Shown piece after piece: positions 29,181 through 63,350 of a stretch of DNA of 64,000 nt (position 1 is its first letter; each line of letters begins with the position of its first letter). Source of the DNA: Rhizophagus irregularis (taxonomy: Eukaryota > Glomeromycota > Glomeromycetes > Glomerales > Glomeraceae). The DNA lies in assembly GCF_026210795.1 (NCBI RefSeq), contig NC_089440.1, forward strand, positions 1,798,001-1,862,000, written 5' to 3'. The notes under the pieces are model-generated. The model was not told the origin of the DNA. It did not search any database and was given only the letters and a program-made list of their open reading frames with translations. The position numbers were made by a program, and so were the translations under genes.

Positions 29181-29518
29181 AAATTATAGTAATACTAAAA
29201 ATTGTAGAAATAAATGTAAGATGTAAATTTATTTATATAGTTTATTATTTTTTATATATAGATTTATTTTACATTATAATTATTATTATATATATAAAGT
29301 AAAGAATAGAATGTTGACGTAGTCAACAGGTACTACATTATTAAAAAGTAAGTATATTTTAATAAAATATAAAGTAAAATAAAAATTTATATAGCCTTAG
29401 TAGCTATAAATGTTTATAAAAGTATAATAAAAATATCATATAAAAGATGGTATCATAATAAATATTTTCAAACAATAAAAATAATTATTTTATGTTGGAG
29501 TTTGTATTACCATCTTTA

Positions 29519-29840
29519 AATGCAAATATATCAAGATTCACTGATCTGTTTTCTATAATTTTAGGTTTGTTGGAAAGCCCTTGTTCTGGATTTTATAGGC
29601 GAAAAAAGAGCTCGCTGATTGAATCATTAGATCCAGAAATATTTACGTTTAAAGTTGAGGTACGAACTTTTTAACATGCTTAATAAATGCAAATATCTTG
29701 GGATCCACTGATCCATTTTTTATAAATTTAAGCTCTTTGGAAAACCTTTGATCTGGTCTATATGAACGAAAAAAGAGTTTGCCAATTGGATCACTGGATC
29801 TGGAGATATTTACGTTTTAAGTTGAGATAAATTTTTAACA
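29519..29840. repeat. Tandem duplication, about 168-bp unit with inverted ends
   Basis: Copies start near 29519 and 29686 with AATGCAAATAT and each contains GCGAAAAAAGAG/ACGAAAAAAGAG, GATCCRGARATATTTACGTTT and AAGTTGAG. In the second copy the ends are inverted: AAATATCTTGGGATCCACTG matches the complement of the right side (AAATATCTCCAGATCCAGTG). The same end motif recurs at 61.5 and 62.6 kb. Confidence 0.75.
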
Positions 29841-30019
29841 TATATAGTAAATGCTAAAAATTATATTAATTTAAAAGAAATATTTACCAAATTATAGTAT
29901 AATAACATTAAATAAAAATTTTTTAATATTCATTTCCAATTTACTGTATATTATATAGTATTTTGTATAATAAAAATGTAATAAAATTAATATTTTAATT
30001 AAAGGTAAACAAATCAGCC

Positions 30020-42077: not shown

Positions 42078-43117
42078 GTAATTCATAAATTTTTAGTTTT
42101 TTTTAATTTTTTGTTTAAATGAAAAATATAAATTTAATAAATAATTTTTCTGCAATTTTATGTAATAATAAATGAAATATAACTTAATAATAACATGTAT
42201 AATTTTTTCTTTTTCTAATTAATATTAAATTGTAATTATATAATTAAAATTGATAAAGTTTTATTATAAGCAAATTTATACTCAAATTACATGAAAAATC
42301 ACACAAAAAAACACCACCAATTAGCTAGCAAATACTAAGTCTTTTATATAGTTTTTCACCTCATAAAAGTTTCATCACATATCAATTATTATAGTATTGC
42401 AAAATTATCTTAATTTTCTATTATAAAATTCTGTTATTACAATTTTGATTAAAGTAATTGAAACTATAAAATTCTAATATAAAAAACATACCTATTATTA
42501 TCTATTCCTTGAGTATTTTTTTTGATAGTGACCAAATTTACCATACAATAAGCATTTATGTATTATTTTATAGGCTGAATGTTATTTTTGTCAGCAATTT
42601 CTTGCATTAGAACTCTTCTTTTTGATATTTCTATTGCACTTCTTAATATTTTTTTGATGAAGCCCCTCTAACTTTAATCATATGAGGACTGGTAATTTGT
42701 TCAATTAAATTTTTTTGTAATAAAACTATATTATTATTTTCTTGATTAGACTCATTAATTTCTACTATATCATGATTAACATTATCATTATTATTTACAT
42801 TTTGTTCTCGCTTTGCTTCAATAAAATCTTTTAATAATTGAATTAATTCACAATTACTATTGGTTTCTAATGCAATATTAACAGCAGTTTTTGCTATAAA
42901 AAATGCTATTTCAAATCTATTTCGTTGATTAGTATTTTGACGAATAACTTTATTATAATCAAACTTTTGAATACAATGTAAACTTTGAATATATATAATG
43001 TAATTTGAGATAATATTTCTGAAGTATCAGTAGTTATTTCTATTGCTGTAAGAATTAGAGAGTTTTTAAGATTAATATCTAAATTAGTTAAAATACTATT
43101 TTTATACTATCTAACAA

Positions 43118-44886
43118 TAGTGCTCCGAAAAAAATCCGATCTGATCTGGATCCGCAGATTTGATCCGAGTCAGATCCGGTTCGGTTTTCAAAATTCTGAT
43201 CCGTAGATCAGATCAGATTTAAAAAAAATCTGATCTGATTAATTTCGGATCGGATCAGATCATAACACAAGAAAATCTGATCCGATCTGAACAGATTCGG
43301 ATCAGATTTTTTTTTAAATAAAAAAAAAAATTTTTTTTTTTTAAAAAACTTTTTCTGGACGAACGGACGAAGCCGGATGACCAAGATTTAAAAAAATGAA
43401 CTAGGTAAGTTCGTTTCTTTTTTTTGTTTTTTTTACTTGAGGGAACGTAATTAACAGTTCCCTTCTTTTTTAGTAGGAAGCCTGGACGAACGAAGCCTAA
43501 CGACACGACCAGGATTTAAAAAAAATGAACGAACTATGGTAAGTTCATTCCTTTTTTTATTTTTTATTTTTTATTTAAGGGAATGTAATTAACGTTCCTT
43601 CTTTTTTTTTTAGGAAACCTGGACGTGAGACGAAGGAACGACCAGGATTTAAGAGAACGAACTATGGTAAGTTCGTTTCTTTTATTTTATTTTATTTTTT
43701 TTTACTTAGGAACGTAATTAACGTTCCCTTTCTTTTTTTTTTAGGAAACCTGGACGTGAGACGAAGGAACAACCAGGATTTTAAGAGAACGAACTATGGT
43801 AAGTTCGTTTTACTTTATTTTATTTTATTTTTTTTTACTTAAAGGGAACGTAATTAACGTTCCCTTTCTTTTTTTTTTAGGAAACCTGGACGTGAGACGA
43901 AGGAACGACCAGGATTTAAGAGAACGAACTATGGTAAGTTCATTTTTTTTTTGTTTTTTTTTTTATTTTTACTTAAAGGAATGTACTAATTAACGTTCCC
44001 TTTCTTTTTTTTAGGAAACCTGGACGTGAGACGAAGCTGAACGACCAGGATTCAAAAAAAGAACGAACTATGGTAAGTTTGTTTCTTTTTTTATTTTTTT
44101 ATTTTTACTTAAGGGAACGTAATTAACGTTCCCTTTCTTTTTTAGGAAACCTGGACGTAAGACGAAGCTGAACGACCAGGATTCAAAAAAAAGAACGAAC
44201 TATGGTAAGTTCGTTTCTTTTTTTTGTTTTGTTTTTTTATTTTTACTTAAGGGAACGTACTAATTAACGTTCCCTTTCTTTTTTTTTAGGAAACCTGAAC
44301 GTGAGACGAAGCTGAACAACCAGGATTCAAAAAAAAGAACGAACTATGGTAAGTTCATTTTTTTTTTGTTTTTGTTTTTTGTTTTTACTTTAAGGGAACG
44401 TAATTAACGTTCCCTTTCTTTTTTTTTTTAGAAACCTGGACGTGAGACGAAGCTGAACGACCAGGATTCAAAAAAAAGAACGAACTATGATAAGTTCGTT
44501 TCTTTTTTTGTTTTTTTTTATTTTTACTTAAGGGAACGTAATTAACGTTCCCTTTCTTTTTTTTTTAGGAAACCTGGACGTGAGACGAAGCTGAACGACC
44601 AGGATTCAAAAAAAAGAACGAACTATGGTAAGTTCGTTTCTTTTTTTGTTTTTTTCTTTTTTACTTCGGTGAACGTAATTAACGTTCCCTTCCTTTTTTA
44701 GGACGGACCAGATCCAAACCAGATTCGGATCAGATTCAAATCGGATTCAAATGAATCTGAACCAGATTCGGATCAAATTGAACCAGATCTGATCGGATTC
44801 AGATCAGATCAGATCTATTAAAATAAAAATCAGATCAGATCAGATTTAAGCTGAATCCGGTCTGAACCGATCTGTTAGGAGCACTA
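43118..44886. mobile_element. hAT-like non-autonomous element C carrying a tandem array
   Basis: Ends TAGTGCTCC and GGAGCACTA form 9-bp terminal inverted repeats, flanked by a perfect 8-bp duplication TCTAACAA (43110-43117 and 44887-44894); both features fit hAT elements. Subterminal regions of about 180 bp on each side (43136-43310 and 44703-44870) are packed with GATCAGATC/GATCTGATC/GGATCAGATC words in both orientations, plausible transposase-binding sites. Between them lies the ~135-bp tandem array. No transposase frame exists, so it needs a helper. Confidence 0.88.
43350..44701 (+). repeat. Tandem array of ten ~135-bp units, each shaped like mini-exon plus mini-intron
   Basis: AG acceptors after long pyrimidine tracts end at 43473, 43613, 43744, 43880, 44014, 44145, 44289, 44431, 44568 and 44701 (spacing 131-144). 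Each is followed by GAAACCTGGACGTGAGACGA or a variant, then AACTATG and a GTAAGT donor (GT at 43405, 43539, 43667, 43799, 43934, 44073, 44205, 44349 and 44628; the unit near 44489 has GATAAG instead). Putative exons are 53-65 nt, introns about 70-85 nt. Two hairpins recur: AACGAACT/AGTTCGTT bracketing the donor, and GGGAACGT/ACGTTCCC just before the pyrimidine tract. Confidence 0.9.
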
Positions 44887-47598
44887 TCTAACAAATATGA
44901 TACTAATATGAAACTTTGCTGAATTTGAATATAATATTACTTTCCAGAAATGTTAGCAAATTATGCCTTTTGTAATTATTTCCAAACAAGTACAAAGTTG
45001 GGTTTCATCATCCAAAAGTATTACTATATTATATTTACATGAAAAGCCACTTATGTGTCTCATTTTCCATATTTTAATAATATTTGAAATTTCAATATCA
45101 CTTAAAAGAGACTTTAAGATTATTTGTGGTTCATCAATAATGTTTTCAATAAAATTATTACTGGTAGTTTCAATATCTAAATTCTATAAAATTTATATAA
45201 AAAAAAATCACATGAAAATATGAATTATATGATCGATTTATTAATTAGTAATGCAACTTATATAAATAATAAATATTATGAAGTTACTATTAATTTTAAT
45301 GAAATAATAGTTATCTCATTTAAAGATGATATTAAACAACCTTCATAAGTGAATGATTAAGAAATTTGAAATTTCTGCCATGATAATACAAGAGGTGTTA
45401 AAAAGTGATTAAGAACTATATCAATACTGAAAAAAAATTGGGATAATAAATATAAAAGACCAACTGTTGTTTGATAAGCTTTAAGGTTGATTAATTTACA
45501 ATACTAAAGTTTATCTTCATATTTTTTATCAATAGTATTTCCAATTTCACAAAGATTACTTGCACTATTTAATGTTTTTTTGATAATTGCATTAAATGAT
45601 TCTATACATTGTGTGGATTGAATATATGCGTTAAATTGGAATGGTGTATAGGCTTTGACCTAGCTACTTTGATTAGGATATAATACTTTAATCATATATT
45701 GATAACTTTCTGGAAATTCATTCATTATCAGTTATAGATTTTCATCATTATTTAAATAACTCTATACTTGACTTAATGTATTTCTACATATGATTACTAC
45801 AATATCAAGATTTAAGCATTAAATATCTAATATAGATAAACAAAAAAACATTATATTTTGATTAGTTTTGCGATTTAAAATTATTTATAACATCCAAATA
45901 GACCTAATAATATTATTTTAATAAAAAAAAAATTCTTATTAGTATTCTAATTAAAAAATTTTAACAAAATTTATAAATAACAAAAAATCTGGTATAATAA
46001 TCACCCTTCTAAGCTCAATAAAAGTTGTTTGTTTCATCAAATTATGGCTAAAAATAAAATAATTAATGGTTAAAAAAAGCTTTTGCTAAAAGTTTTATTG
46101 AAATCAAAAAATTTTTTTTTTATTATAAAAATTGACTTTTTGCAGTTTACACAAAAACTACCTAAATAACTACCTTTTTCAACTTAGTAAATCTTTTTCT
46201 TCTTGTAAAATTACATATATTTTTATCATTTAAATTGTATTTTACATCTACTTTTAAGTTGCATTTGGAGGAAAACTTCATTTTTAAGACAAACTTTCTT
46301 ATATATGCAAAAAAAAAAAATTATTATTACTAAAGAGGAAATGATGATGAAAATTTATAATACATATGACGAACTGTTAATTTACTTAATTTGTATAAGC
46401 GTTATATTAAGAATTTCTTTTTTTAGCTACATGATAGAATATTCAATTATGGTTACACAAAATTATTTTAATTAATGATTAGCAAGTGATCTGAAATGAC
46501 TGCTGACTGTCATTGGTATAAATCCTGTTAGGAGGGATATTCAGAAAATACCAGACAAATGACGTTTATTACCTGAATGTCGAACAAATACCTTCTAACC
46601 TGAATCTTGAATTATTTTTTCAAAAAAATTGTTAAGTAATGAACTTGTATCAGAATTTTCTTTATTTTCATTTTTACATAAATGGTATATTAAGTTATAA
46701 ACATCCTATTTATGGAATACATGTTGTGGATGTTTTTTTTTAAAAATTTCTAATTGTATAATAGATGCCACTTTGCAGTCTGTAAAAAACTTTAAATCTT
46801 ATATCATCTCATTATTAAAATGTCGATATCTAGTATTAAAATAAATGTACTATTTATATAGGATTTAATTCATGATTGTATATATCTACTAATGTTATAC
46901 ACTTTATTTTATTTTCTGTCTTTGGTAATGAAAAATTACAATACTATTCACAATTGTTTTTGCTAGAATTGCGTGAACAATGCAAATCTTGATTAATAAT
47001 CTTACAGGCTTCATAATTACCACTAGAAGAACAATAAAATGATTTGTGTTGGATAATAGAATGATTATTTGCATCTTTATCATATGAAAAACCTGATATC
47101 TAAAGCTTCTTTCTAAGCAGTTATTGTGCAAAAATGTATCAACTGATGTCCAGTCATTAAAACTATCTTCTATACAAAGATTATATTGATATGAAGAACA
47201 GTTTAAGCTGTCATTTAAACCGTTAAATAGTTCTGTAAGTTTTTCTTTTAGTTCATTAAACAAGTGTTCAGGAGAATTAGGAGGTATAATAATATTTTCT
47301 AATACATTTTCTTCTAATTCATTAAAAAAGTATTCAGGAAACTTGGAAGGTGTAATAATATCTTCTAATATACTTTTTTCATTATTTTCAATAAAAAAAT
47401 TTGTAGGTAAAATGGTGTCTTTGGGAAAATTTATAAAAAAATCCCAATTTATATCCATTATGGTAAAGGATTTGTTAGGATAAATATCACTACATTAATT
47501 ATCATTCCTTTATTTAATATATGTAGAGTACAAATATTTATTTAGTTAAAATTCATATATTTGTATAATAATTACATTATAAAACATTATGGTAAAAA

Positions 47599-60900: not shown

Positions 60901-61530
60901 AGATTAATATCTTTCTTTAAGCCAAAATATAATGAGAATAATTCTTAGAAATATTGAAAAATATCCATTATAATACCACTTTTTATACAATAACTTTTAG
61001 ATTTTTTTGTGTAAAAATTGAAATTATATATATTTACAGTTAGTTTGAATATAAAAAGTTCCTATATTGTACAATTATATAAATGAAAATTAACCATATA
61101 TTTCAAAAATATAAAAATTCAAAAAATTTATTAAACTTATTAGAAGAAAAAATTTCAAATAATATTTATTGAACCTTAAAATACTTTTATAAATATTCAT
61201 GACTATTAAATTTTTATTTTCATTTTAAAATATACTTACTTGCTAATAATATACATTAAAATATTATATAGGTAAAAAATAGAGTTTTTGTTAGCAAAAT
61301 AGGTTTTTTTGCATTTCTTTTATATTTAATAATTTAAGTTTTACAAATGTAAATTTTTATTTAACTTATTATTTAATCAAATAATTGTTTTAACAGGCGT
61401 GCCAGAAATCAGCTGATTTTTCTCAATTAGTAGCCTTAATCCCCACCCCTATCTGATTGAAATCTGATTGGCTAAAAAAATTATTACTATTAAATATTAA
61501 ATATTATACATAATATAATATTATATAATT

Positions 61531-61821
61531 ATCTTGGCTTCTAGTGATTCAATTTGAACAAACTTTTTTTTGTTTTGTGAAGCTAGATTTATAGAACTAA
61601 ATGAGAGCTATAAATTAAAAAAAAAGTTTATTAAAATTGGATCACTAGAGGTCAAGATAATTGTATTATAATAATTATTATAATGTAAATACAAATATCT
61701 TGGCTTCTAGTGATTCAATTGAACAAACTTTTTTTGTTTTATAAAGCTAGATTTGTAGAGCTAAATGAGAGCTATAAATTAAAAAAAAGTTTATTAAAAT
61801 TGGATCACTAGAAGTCAAGAT
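61531..61821. repeat. Tandem pair of palindromic ~127-bp repeats
   Basis: Copies at 61531-61658 and 61697-61821 are over 90% alike by eye. Each folds back: ATCTTGGCTTCTAGTGATTC at the left pairs with GGATCACTAGARGTCAAGAT at the right, extended by CAATT and by AAACTTTTTTT/AAAAAAAGTTT. They look like MITEs or foldback repeats duplicated in tandem. Confidence 0.88.
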
Positions 61822-61829
61822 AATTGCAT

Positions 61830-63350
61830 TATAATAATTATATAAAAATAATTTAATTGCCGATTCGTCTAAGAACAGCACTGCGTTACTAATAAAATTT
61901 GGGGTTAAATTTGCTGATTTTGTGCTAGAACACAATCTTCGGAAAAGGATATTTTCATAGATGACATATTAACTATAAATAAAGTCATTTGATATACTGA
62001 AAAAATACTTGAAAAAAAAGAATTTGCAAAAAAAAATTATACATTCATATGTAATTGGTTAAATTTTAACTTAAAAATAGGTGTAAAAATAATATATTTT
62101 ACCAAATATTAAAATTTATACTTTTCTAATTTAGTATTAATTTTTAACCTGACTCTTATAACTTTTTGCTCCAACAATTGGTTAGAAAGTATTATATGAT
62201 TAAGTAGATTATATGATGCATTAAGTTATTTAAACAAATTAATTATAAAGAGATTTTTAATTATTTTAAATGAAATTTTTATTACTATTCATACTTTTAA
62301 AACAGTCTTATCAATTTTATTTTATTCATATATTAATGCATAAGTACCAATCACCAGGTGCACAAAAATAATAGATCAATATCAGCTGATGTAAATAAAA
62401 TTGATCGTCATATGATTTTTTATTTTTTTTAATATAACATCAATAAAATTTAAAAAATCAAAATAAAATTATTGTGATAAAATTTTAAATAACTTGACGT
62501 ATATGTATGCTAAACAGATAAATTTATATTCATTTGAAAGAGAAAACAAAAGCCTATCTAATGAATCTAAAATTACATCAAATCACTGATTGTTGAGTAA
62601 ATGCGTTTAGTATAATTATTTTTAATTTTTAACTTTAATCGTTAATATCTCCACATCTAGTAATTCAATTTGAATGATCTTTAATTACTAAGATAGAGTA
62701 CGTTCCCATCTTTCGAATGAATATAAAATTATTTGATTAACATATATGGATGCTGAGATATTAACGAACATGTAAATTGCATAAAACCTGATATAAATAA
62801 ATTTTTAAAGTTACATTTTCTTACCAAAAAATTATTTTCACAAGAGATCTTGAATAATTGTTGTCTATTTAACGATAATTATTCATTATTTAAAGTTTTA
62901 ATTGAATAAAACTATTAAAATAAATATCAAAAAATAGAAGACAATTAGTATAAAATTAGTTTAATAAAAAATAAAAAAAAAACTTTTAAAAATCCTATAT
63001 CATAGATTATATTTTAATTTAATATATATTTTACAGAAAAAAAGAGAGGAACTAAAGTTAAAAACAAATAAAAAATCATTTTTCTTATAAATAAAAAATA
63101 TTTATTTATTTTTTCTTTTACTTACTATTTAAAAATAACCACTTTATATATTTACAAACTTTTTTAACTCATTTAATGAAAAAGTGATTGAAGAAAGAAG
63201 CAGTCATTATCATTGTTTTTGAATATAATTTAAAAAAAAATTTTTATTTTCTGATAAATTCAGATCATCTGAACATGTAACACATATTTAATTTAAATTT
63301 GTAAAACACAATTCTTATTAAACGAATAAATTTTTACAAAAATCTTAATT
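61830..63350. other. A+T-rich intergenic tail with no supported gene
   Basis: Apart from the foldback repeat at 62640-62766, nothing coding or structural can be supported. A 62-codon minus-strand stretch at 61747-61935 lies partly inside the palindromic repeat and is not coding. Confidence 0.5.
62640..62766. repeat. Foldback repeat related to the 61.5-kb pair
   Basis: CGTTAATATCTCCACATCTA (62640-62659) pairs imperfectly with the complement of the right end (TATATGGATGCTGAGATATTAACG, 62743-62766). The adjacent GTAATTCAATTTGAA matches the AGTGATTCAATTTGAAC of the 61.5-kb copies. Confidence 0.6.

What the first reader, a model, noticed from the sequence alone, without database searches (positions are those of the whole stretch)
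43350..44701. Tandem array in which nearly every unit is bracketed by consensus splice sites
Ten units of 131-144 bp alternate a conserved 53-65-nt block with a 70-85-nt T-rich spacer. The block is preceded by a long pyrimidine tract plus AG and followed by GTAAGT; all but one donor (near 44489) is intact despite other sequence drift. Homopolymer lengths vary but splice signals are kept. If transcribed on the plus strand, the array would be a chain of mini-exons. Exon lengths are not multiples of three (65, 53, 54, 53, 58, 59, 59, 59), so it would not give one long repeat protein; it could instead shed many small introns, act as an exon trap, or alter transcripts of genes the element lands in. 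The alternative is a satellite amplified from one exon-intron junction, with conservation due only to recent amplification.
Basis: partly seen in the sequence, partly recalled or inferred. Interest (0 to 1): 0.75.

Follow-up and report, generated by a model that had tools for sequence, protein, structure and literature searches.

The report
hAT transposon carrying intron-like tandem repeats
The array is the inside of a short jumping gene that has copied itself across a soil fungus's chromosomes; each repeat looks like a small exon plus intron, but those splice-like signals decay about as fast as comparable bases around them, so there is no sign yet that they are used.

Summary
The array is the interior of a 1,769-bp transposon at 43118-44886 with 9-bp inverted ends (TAGTGCTCC) and a perfect 8-bp target duplication, TCTAACAA. 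Two related genomic copies of the interrupted sequence show the empty site. Of 47 distinct loci, 37 have both ends; 29 of those 37 have identical 8-bp duplications, with an nTnnnnAn tendency. A hAT transposase copy in the same genome (L049) shares both ends. It is a non-autonomous hAT element with an internal minisatellite.

Across 374 full units, donor bases first look conserved (P=0.005), but not against sites with the same trinucleotide: 50 terminal and 11 internal changes versus 59 and 13 expected, P=0.18 and 0.36. The unit's hairpins show no covariation; no spliced, reintegrated copy was found. Here the array lies antisense to the reading frame of the gene family it interrupts. The signals are best explained as inherited with the unit and carried by transposition. 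Splicing itself could not be tested: no RNA data.

The parts
43118..44886 (+). non-autonomous hAT-type transposon, 1,769 bp
   Evidence: 9-bp perfect terminal inverted repeats TAGTGCTCC/GGAGCACTA and 8-bp TSD; empty site in two paralogous copies
43110..43117 (.). left target-site duplication TCTAACAA
   Evidence: identical to right copy
44887..44894 (.). right target-site duplication TCTAACAA
   Evidence: identical to left copy
43118..43320 (+). left terminal region with AGATC/GATCT subterminal repeats
   Evidence: 4 AGATC and 4 GATCT here, none in the array; a search with 43118-43300 gave 60 matches, 40 of 97 candidates scored
43355..44701 (+). tandem array of ten units (start-to-start 131-144 bp for the full ones), each an exon-like block plus an intron-like T-rich spacer
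43405..43410 (+). first of nine intact GTAAGT donor-like hexamers (others start 43539, 43667, 43799, 43934, 44073, 44205, 44349, 44628)
44490..44495 (+). the one damaged donor, ATAAGT
44569..44701 (+). last complete unit; holds three inverted repeats: CCTGGACG..ACGACCAGG, AACGAACT-ATGGTA-AGTTCGTT (overlaps the donor), and a GGGAACGT..ACGTTCCC-type repeat, imperfect in this unit
   Evidence: fold of 44563-44703, z -3.25 plus strand, -5.58 minus strand; no covariation across units
44702..44886 (+). right terminal region with AGATC/GATCT subterminal repeats
   Evidence: 7 AGATC and 3 GATCT; a search with 44703-44886 gave 40 matches, 40 of 119 candidates scored
42643..43026 (-). ORF remnant of a multicopy gene family; the element sits 91 bp beyond its upstream end, antisense to it
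   Evidence: 50 matches genome-wide; L077 (89%) and L078 (75%) align straight through the insertion point; in L078 a 305-aa open frame on the minus strand crosses the site, while the window copy and L077 have no long frame there

Best explanation
The array is the internal minisatellite of a non-autonomous hAT DNA transposon in what is very probably the Rhizophagus irregularis DAOM197198 genome. Shown: inverted ends, 8-bp target duplications, an empty site, dozens of dispersed copies (2-16 unit hits per locus), and a hAT transposase copy with the same two ends. Inferred: a transposase supplied in trans binds the AGATC-rich subterminal repeats and cuts and pastes the whole element. The unit arose once, possibly from a captured exon-intron junction, and was tandemly multiplied in an ancestral element. 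It then spread by transposition, with unit number changing by unequal exchange or slippage. The GTAAGT, branch-like TTAAC and Y-tract AG came with that founding unit and now decay at about the rate of comparable bases; no function was detected.
For: Ends and TSD: 37 of 47 distinct loci have both ends, 29 of 37 with identical 8-bp TSDs and 35 of 37 with at most 2 mismatches; T at position 2 in 23 of 35 and A at position 7 in 24 of 35, like the nTnnnnAn preference reported for Hermes (PMC10368747, passages). Empty site in two paralogs. Transposase: L049 has both ends, PF05699 (E 8.1e-25) and PF14372 (1.4e-6); L051 has zf-BED (3.2e-6) but only a right end in the fetched stretch. Array spread by transposition: the nearest relative of a unit lies in another element for 352 of 374 units, at a correlated relative position (r=0.66). 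Decay: splice sites 50 terminal and 11 internal changes versus 59 and 13 expected from same-trinucleotide sites, P=0.18 and 0.36.
Against: Before trinucleotide matching the donor looked conserved: 30 terminal changes versus 55 expected, P=0.005, and P below 0.001 with alignment-clean controls; internal branches P=0.08 and 0.12. Trinucleotide controls are few (1-8 per site), so weak constraint in the lineage that transposes is not excluded. The donor and the branch-like region are among the least changed six-base windows (donor sixth of 106; AATTAA, TAATTA first and second). A splice-like unit is unlikely by chance (about 1%), so an ancestral exon-intron source is plausible but was not found. 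Units of one element are each other's nearest relatives more often than chance (22 of 374, 5.9% against 1.8%; half of these in L061 and L070).
Confidence: 0.82

Rival explanations
1. The plus strand is transcribed and the spliceosome removes the mini-introns, so the element acts as an exon trap or lets a host transcript survive its insertion.
For: Complete-looking introns of 69-85 nt; GT kept in 354 and AG in 347 of 374 units, and 22 of 56 loci keep GT and AG in every full unit; raw donor conservation P=0.005. Two composite copies (L061, L070) carry the array in sense orientation just after an exon-1-like ORF that ends at a GTAAGT.
Against: No significant excess conservation against same-trinucleotide sites; the exon's last G changes fast; the donor region can fold into a hairpin; no exon-exon junction copy in the genome with up to 3 mismatches; in this window the array is antisense to the frame of the gene family it interrupts.
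Confidence: 0.12
2. The unit is kept for its hairpins (three inverted repeats per unit) acting in RNA or single-stranded DNA.
For: One window unit folds better than all 200 shuffles on both strands (z -3.25 and -5.58).
Against: 27 column pairs (one an A-A mismatch) tested over 313 units: none shows significantly more double changes than independence predicts (lowest Fisher P 0.16).
Confidence: 0.05
3. The units are introner-like: single intron-sized elements that insert into genes and create introns.
For: Units have intron signals and are high-copy (329 donor sites within 2 mismatches genome-wide); among introner families 49 of 130 show TSDs and 72 of 177 show TIRs (PMC9860276, passages).
Against: 307 of those 329 sites lie in loci retrieved, and each of 57 loci holds at least two unit hits; TSDs bracket whole elements, not units. 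Caveat: loci were picked by best unit or end match, which favours arrays, and the other 22 sites were not all examined.
Confidence: 0.02

Closest known systems
Ac/Ds family of maize (non-autonomous hAT; Ds1, Ds2, Ds-like)
   Same: 8-bp TSD, short TIRs shared with an autonomous element, repeated subterminal motifs, heterogeneous interiors; some Ds-like elements hold captured sequence with GT-AG introns (PMC3260210, passages). Ds1 acting as an intron is the title of a paper in that reference list, and Ds1 exonization is studied (PMC5432752, abstract start in listing)
   Different: Here the interior is a tandem array of about ten intron-like units; no transcript or splicing evidence is available
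Small transposons with an internal minisatellite or satellite (Xenopus miDNA4-MITE, bivalve pearl/CvA, Porphyromonas MITE, Drosophila Tetris)
   Same: TIR element carrying or seeding tandem repeats (PMC9659126, passages; PMC4596501 and PMC4079207, listing only)
   Different: In what I saw of those papers no unit resembles an exon plus intron; this element is longer than the 1-kb limit used for MITEs in this species
Introners / introner-like elements of fungi and algae
   Same: Mobile DNA that makes introns, part of it with TIRs and TSDs (PMC9860276, passages)
   Different: An introner is one intron per insertion; here many donors and acceptors sit inside one element and the element ends are not splice sites

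Membership tests
hAT superfamily (non-autonomous member) | 8-bp target-site duplication | tested here: met
   window copy perfect; 29 of 37 two-ended loci identical, 35 of 37 with at most 2 mismatches; exceptions L004 and L041 with 6 mismatches each. Three of nine later loci checked by motif: L064, L065 identical, L068 two mismatches
hAT superfamily (non-autonomous member) | short terminal inverted repeats beginning T/C-A-G/A-N-G (consensus recalled) | tested here: met
   TAGTGCTCC/GGAGCACTA
hAT superfamily (non-autonomous member) | hAT transposase gene with matching ends in the same genome | tested here: met
   L049 has both ends, PF05699 and PF14372; zf-BED in L051, right end only in the stretch. 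Only the outermost 29 (one mismatch) and 18 bases match closely
hAT superfamily (non-autonomous member) | mobilisation by that transposase | not testable with these tools
   needs an excision assay
MITE in the R. irregularis catalogue | TIR element of 50 bp-1 kb without transposase (definition in PMC11075540) | tested here: not met
   window copy is 1,769 bp; some copies with fewer units are under 1 kb (L021 787, L045 962)
Transposon with internal minisatellite | tandem array between the TIRs, unit number varying between copies | tested here: met
   3 to 12 unit hits in the 37 two-ended loci
Introner | one mobile unit makes one intron, inserted in coding sequence and spliced in its sense | tested here: not met
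   units occur in arrays of at least two in 57 of 57 loci, TSDs flank whole elements; window copy antisense to the interrupted family's frame
Spliceosomal introns in use | spliced transcripts | not testable with these tools
   no RNA data
Spliceosomal introns in use | splice positions change more slowly than comparable sites | tested here: inconclusive
   seen with base-matched controls (P=0.005 for the donor), lost with trinucleotide-matched controls (P=0.18/0.36)

The most novel reading that the evidence does not exclude
Some copies are transcribed on the plus strand and spliced at many of their units, making the element a mobile chain of ready-made introns: a hAT transposon that supplies up to ten donors and acceptors to whatever transcript it lands in, and so can be hidden from, or exonized into, host messages.
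Probability: 0.12. Interest if true: 0.72.

Novelty: new variant of a known kind. Interest (0 to 1): 0.3.

Why it matters
It identifies the array as the interior of a dispersed hAT family in a genome where, by one paper's account, two-thirds of transposable elements were unclassified (PMC11075540). It also gives a natural test set, several hundred copies of one intron-like unit, for asking when spliceosomes use intron-shaped DNA. If spliced, it would be a new route for transposons to deliver introns. If not, it warns that splice-like repeats can be inherited baggage and that apparent conservation can come from mutation context.

Tried and rejected
Rfam: no match in the window at gathering scores. 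Autonomous parent among long copies: of L039-L042 I looked at frames only; the extra DNA interrupts or replaces array units, and no family search was run on it. Unit in the hAT transposase copies L049-L051, in L048 or in the nine short elements with the same ends: no profile match at 15 bits or more, so the unit's source was not found. Open frames across the empty sites of 35 elements: at least 80 aa in 4 of 35 (L009 and L014 plus, L015 and L031 minus), too few for an orientation test. Pfam on the interrupted ORF, two neighbouring ORFs and one ORF of L076 gave nothing over a curated cut-off. Hairpin covariation not found. The first conservation counts (313 units) and the base-matched tests were followed by the trinucleotide-matched one because G or C sites in AGG/CCT, AGT/ACT and GGT/ACC contexts tend to change less elsewhere in the unit too; all are reported.

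Rows dropped: L022 was left out of unit counts because it lies inside L040; 90 of 464 unit hits that were partial or lay at array edges were left out of the 374; alignment columns with more than 7% gaps (5%) were left out of change counts.

Full report
Where it is. The window is 64 kb of contig 12 of a 146.7-Mb, 32-contig genome. Contig C13 is 5,085,394 bases long, exactly the scaffold N50 (L50 13) printed for the 32-chromosome assembly of Rhizophagus irregularis DAOM197198 (PMC10234402, passages). I take that as the organism by inference.

The observation. The spliced chain is closed in all three frames. A splice-like pair arises in 0.5-1.4% of shuffled units, so the founding unit is unlikely to be pure chance; but as the units are copies of one another, this is one event.

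What carries it. The array is framed by AGATC-rich regions and 9-bp inverted ends, with TCTAACAA on both sides: a 1,769-bp element at 43118-44886. A unit search returned 302 matches with 40 of 106 candidates scored; searches with the left and right terminal regions scored 40 of 97 and 40 of 119 candidates, so all counts are lower bounds. I fetched L001-L047; L022 lies inside L040, so with the window there are 47 distinct loci. Of these, 37 have both ends, 29 of 37 with identical 8-bp duplications and 35 of 37 with at most two mismatches. The two exceptions are L004, whose left end abuts another element's end, and L041. Position 2 is T in 23 of 35 and position 7 is A in 24 of 35, like the nTnnnnAn of the hAT transposon Hermes (PMC10368747, passages). 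Two paralogous copies of the interrupted sequence align straight through the insertion point (L077 89%, L078 75%). The neighbouring minus-strand ORF has 50 matches in the genome, and in L078 a 305-aa minus-strand frame crosses the site; in the window copy and in L077 no long frame crosses it, so the element went into, or now sits in, a decayed copy. A 167-aa plus-strand frame also crosses the site in L078. I read the family as minus-strand, which makes the splice-like signals antisense here.

Who moves it. Exact searches for the end sequences gave 56 left-end and 65 right-end matches. Among the 13 places I fetched from these are nine 670-789-bp elements with no array (L052-L060), a 3.9-kb element (L048), and hAT transposase copies (L049-L051; L050 and L051 show only a right end in the fetched stretch). 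L049 carries PF05699 (E 8.1e-25) and PF14372 (1.4e-6); L051 carries zf-BED (3.2e-6). The window element and L049 share the first 19 bases and, after one mismatch, nine more at the left end, and the last 18 at the right end. That such a transposase moves the array element is inferred.

How the array evolved. In 374 full units from 56 loci, the closest relative of a unit is in another locus in 352 cases, at a correlated relative position (r=0.66); within- and between-locus distances are 0.110 and 0.119. Same-locus relatives (22 of 374, 5.9%) still exceed chance (1.8%), half of them in L061 and L070. So the array is mostly older than the dispersal and travels whole, with some local turnover. Unit number differs: 3-12 unit hits in two-ended loci, 2-16 over 57 loci. 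L061 and L070 lie just after an exon-1-like ORF found at nine places, in a composite repeated at C4 and C28.

Are the splice signals kept? GT is present in 354 and AG in 347 of 374 units, GTAAGT in 321, and 22 of 56 loci have GT and AG in all full units. Changes were counted by parsimony on a unit tree. With controls matched for base and homopolymer membership, splice sites had 50 terminal and 11 internal changes versus 79 and 18.8 expected (P 0.003 and 0.089). The donor accounted for this (30 and 6 versus 55 and 13, P 0.005 and 0.080); the acceptor did not (P 0.26 and 0.56). With alignment-clean controls the donor's terminal P fell below 0.001, internal 0.116; the branch-like TAATTAAC behaved likewise (terminal P below 0.001, internal 0.335). 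The effect being stronger on terminal branches, where copies should be drifting, points to mutation context. With controls sharing the same trinucleotide the expectation is 59 and 13 against 50 and 11 (P 0.18 and 0.36). The branch-like stretch was not retested that way. The controls are few per site, so weak constraint remains possible.

Other tests. The unit has three inverted repeats and one window unit folds well on both strands, but paired positions change independently. A pattern for the exon-exon junction found no place in the genome with up to 3 mismatches, while the reversed control found 2: no trace of a spliced, reintegrated copy, though this is a weak test. 307 of the 329 near-exact donor sites of the genome lie in loci retrieved, where arrays of at least two units are the rule; the choice of loci favours arrays.

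Literature. Transposons that carry or seed tandem arrays are known (PMC9659126, passages), hAT elements with captured introns are known (PMC3260210, passages), and Ds1 is studied for exonization (PMC5432752, listing). In the passages I saw of the R. irregularis transposon paper (PMC11075540) no such element is described; its supplements were not looked at. Among the titles and abstract starts listed I saw no intron-like minisatellite in a transposon; that is the reach of those searches only.

Verdict. A well-supported non-autonomous hAT family with an unusual intron-shaped minisatellite; the functional splicing reading is possible but unsupported.

Noticed in passing
L061 (C4:1721500-1725500) and L070 (C28:1878800-1884600): Composite repeat: an exon-1-like ORF (MRKSRLSTTKPFSLREG..., nine places in the genome) ending at GTAAGT, followed in sense by a longer, locally homogenised array (in L061 with a 53-bp piece of the hAT left region in between). 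Downstream ORFs of related loci reminded me of Plavaka-type transposases (recalled; the one ORF scanned had no Pfam match).
   Followed up: partly
L052-L060: Nine 670-789-bp elements with the same ends as the array element and no array; 8 of 9 have identical 8-bp duplications.
   Followed up: partly
L039: An array copy interrupted by about 3.7 kb of other DNA with ORFs of up to 251 aa.
   Followed up: no
L056: A short hAT element sits inside an ORF that resembles a LINE reverse transcriptase (resemblance recalled, not searched).
   Followed up: no
all units: C and G sites change several times as often as A and T sites, most of all at CpG; cytosine-methylation decay is a possible cause (inference).
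   Followed up: partly
window 61523-61845 and 29517-29841: Two further tandem duplications, about 163 bp x 2 (92% matches) and 167 bp x 2 (77% matches).
   Followed up: no
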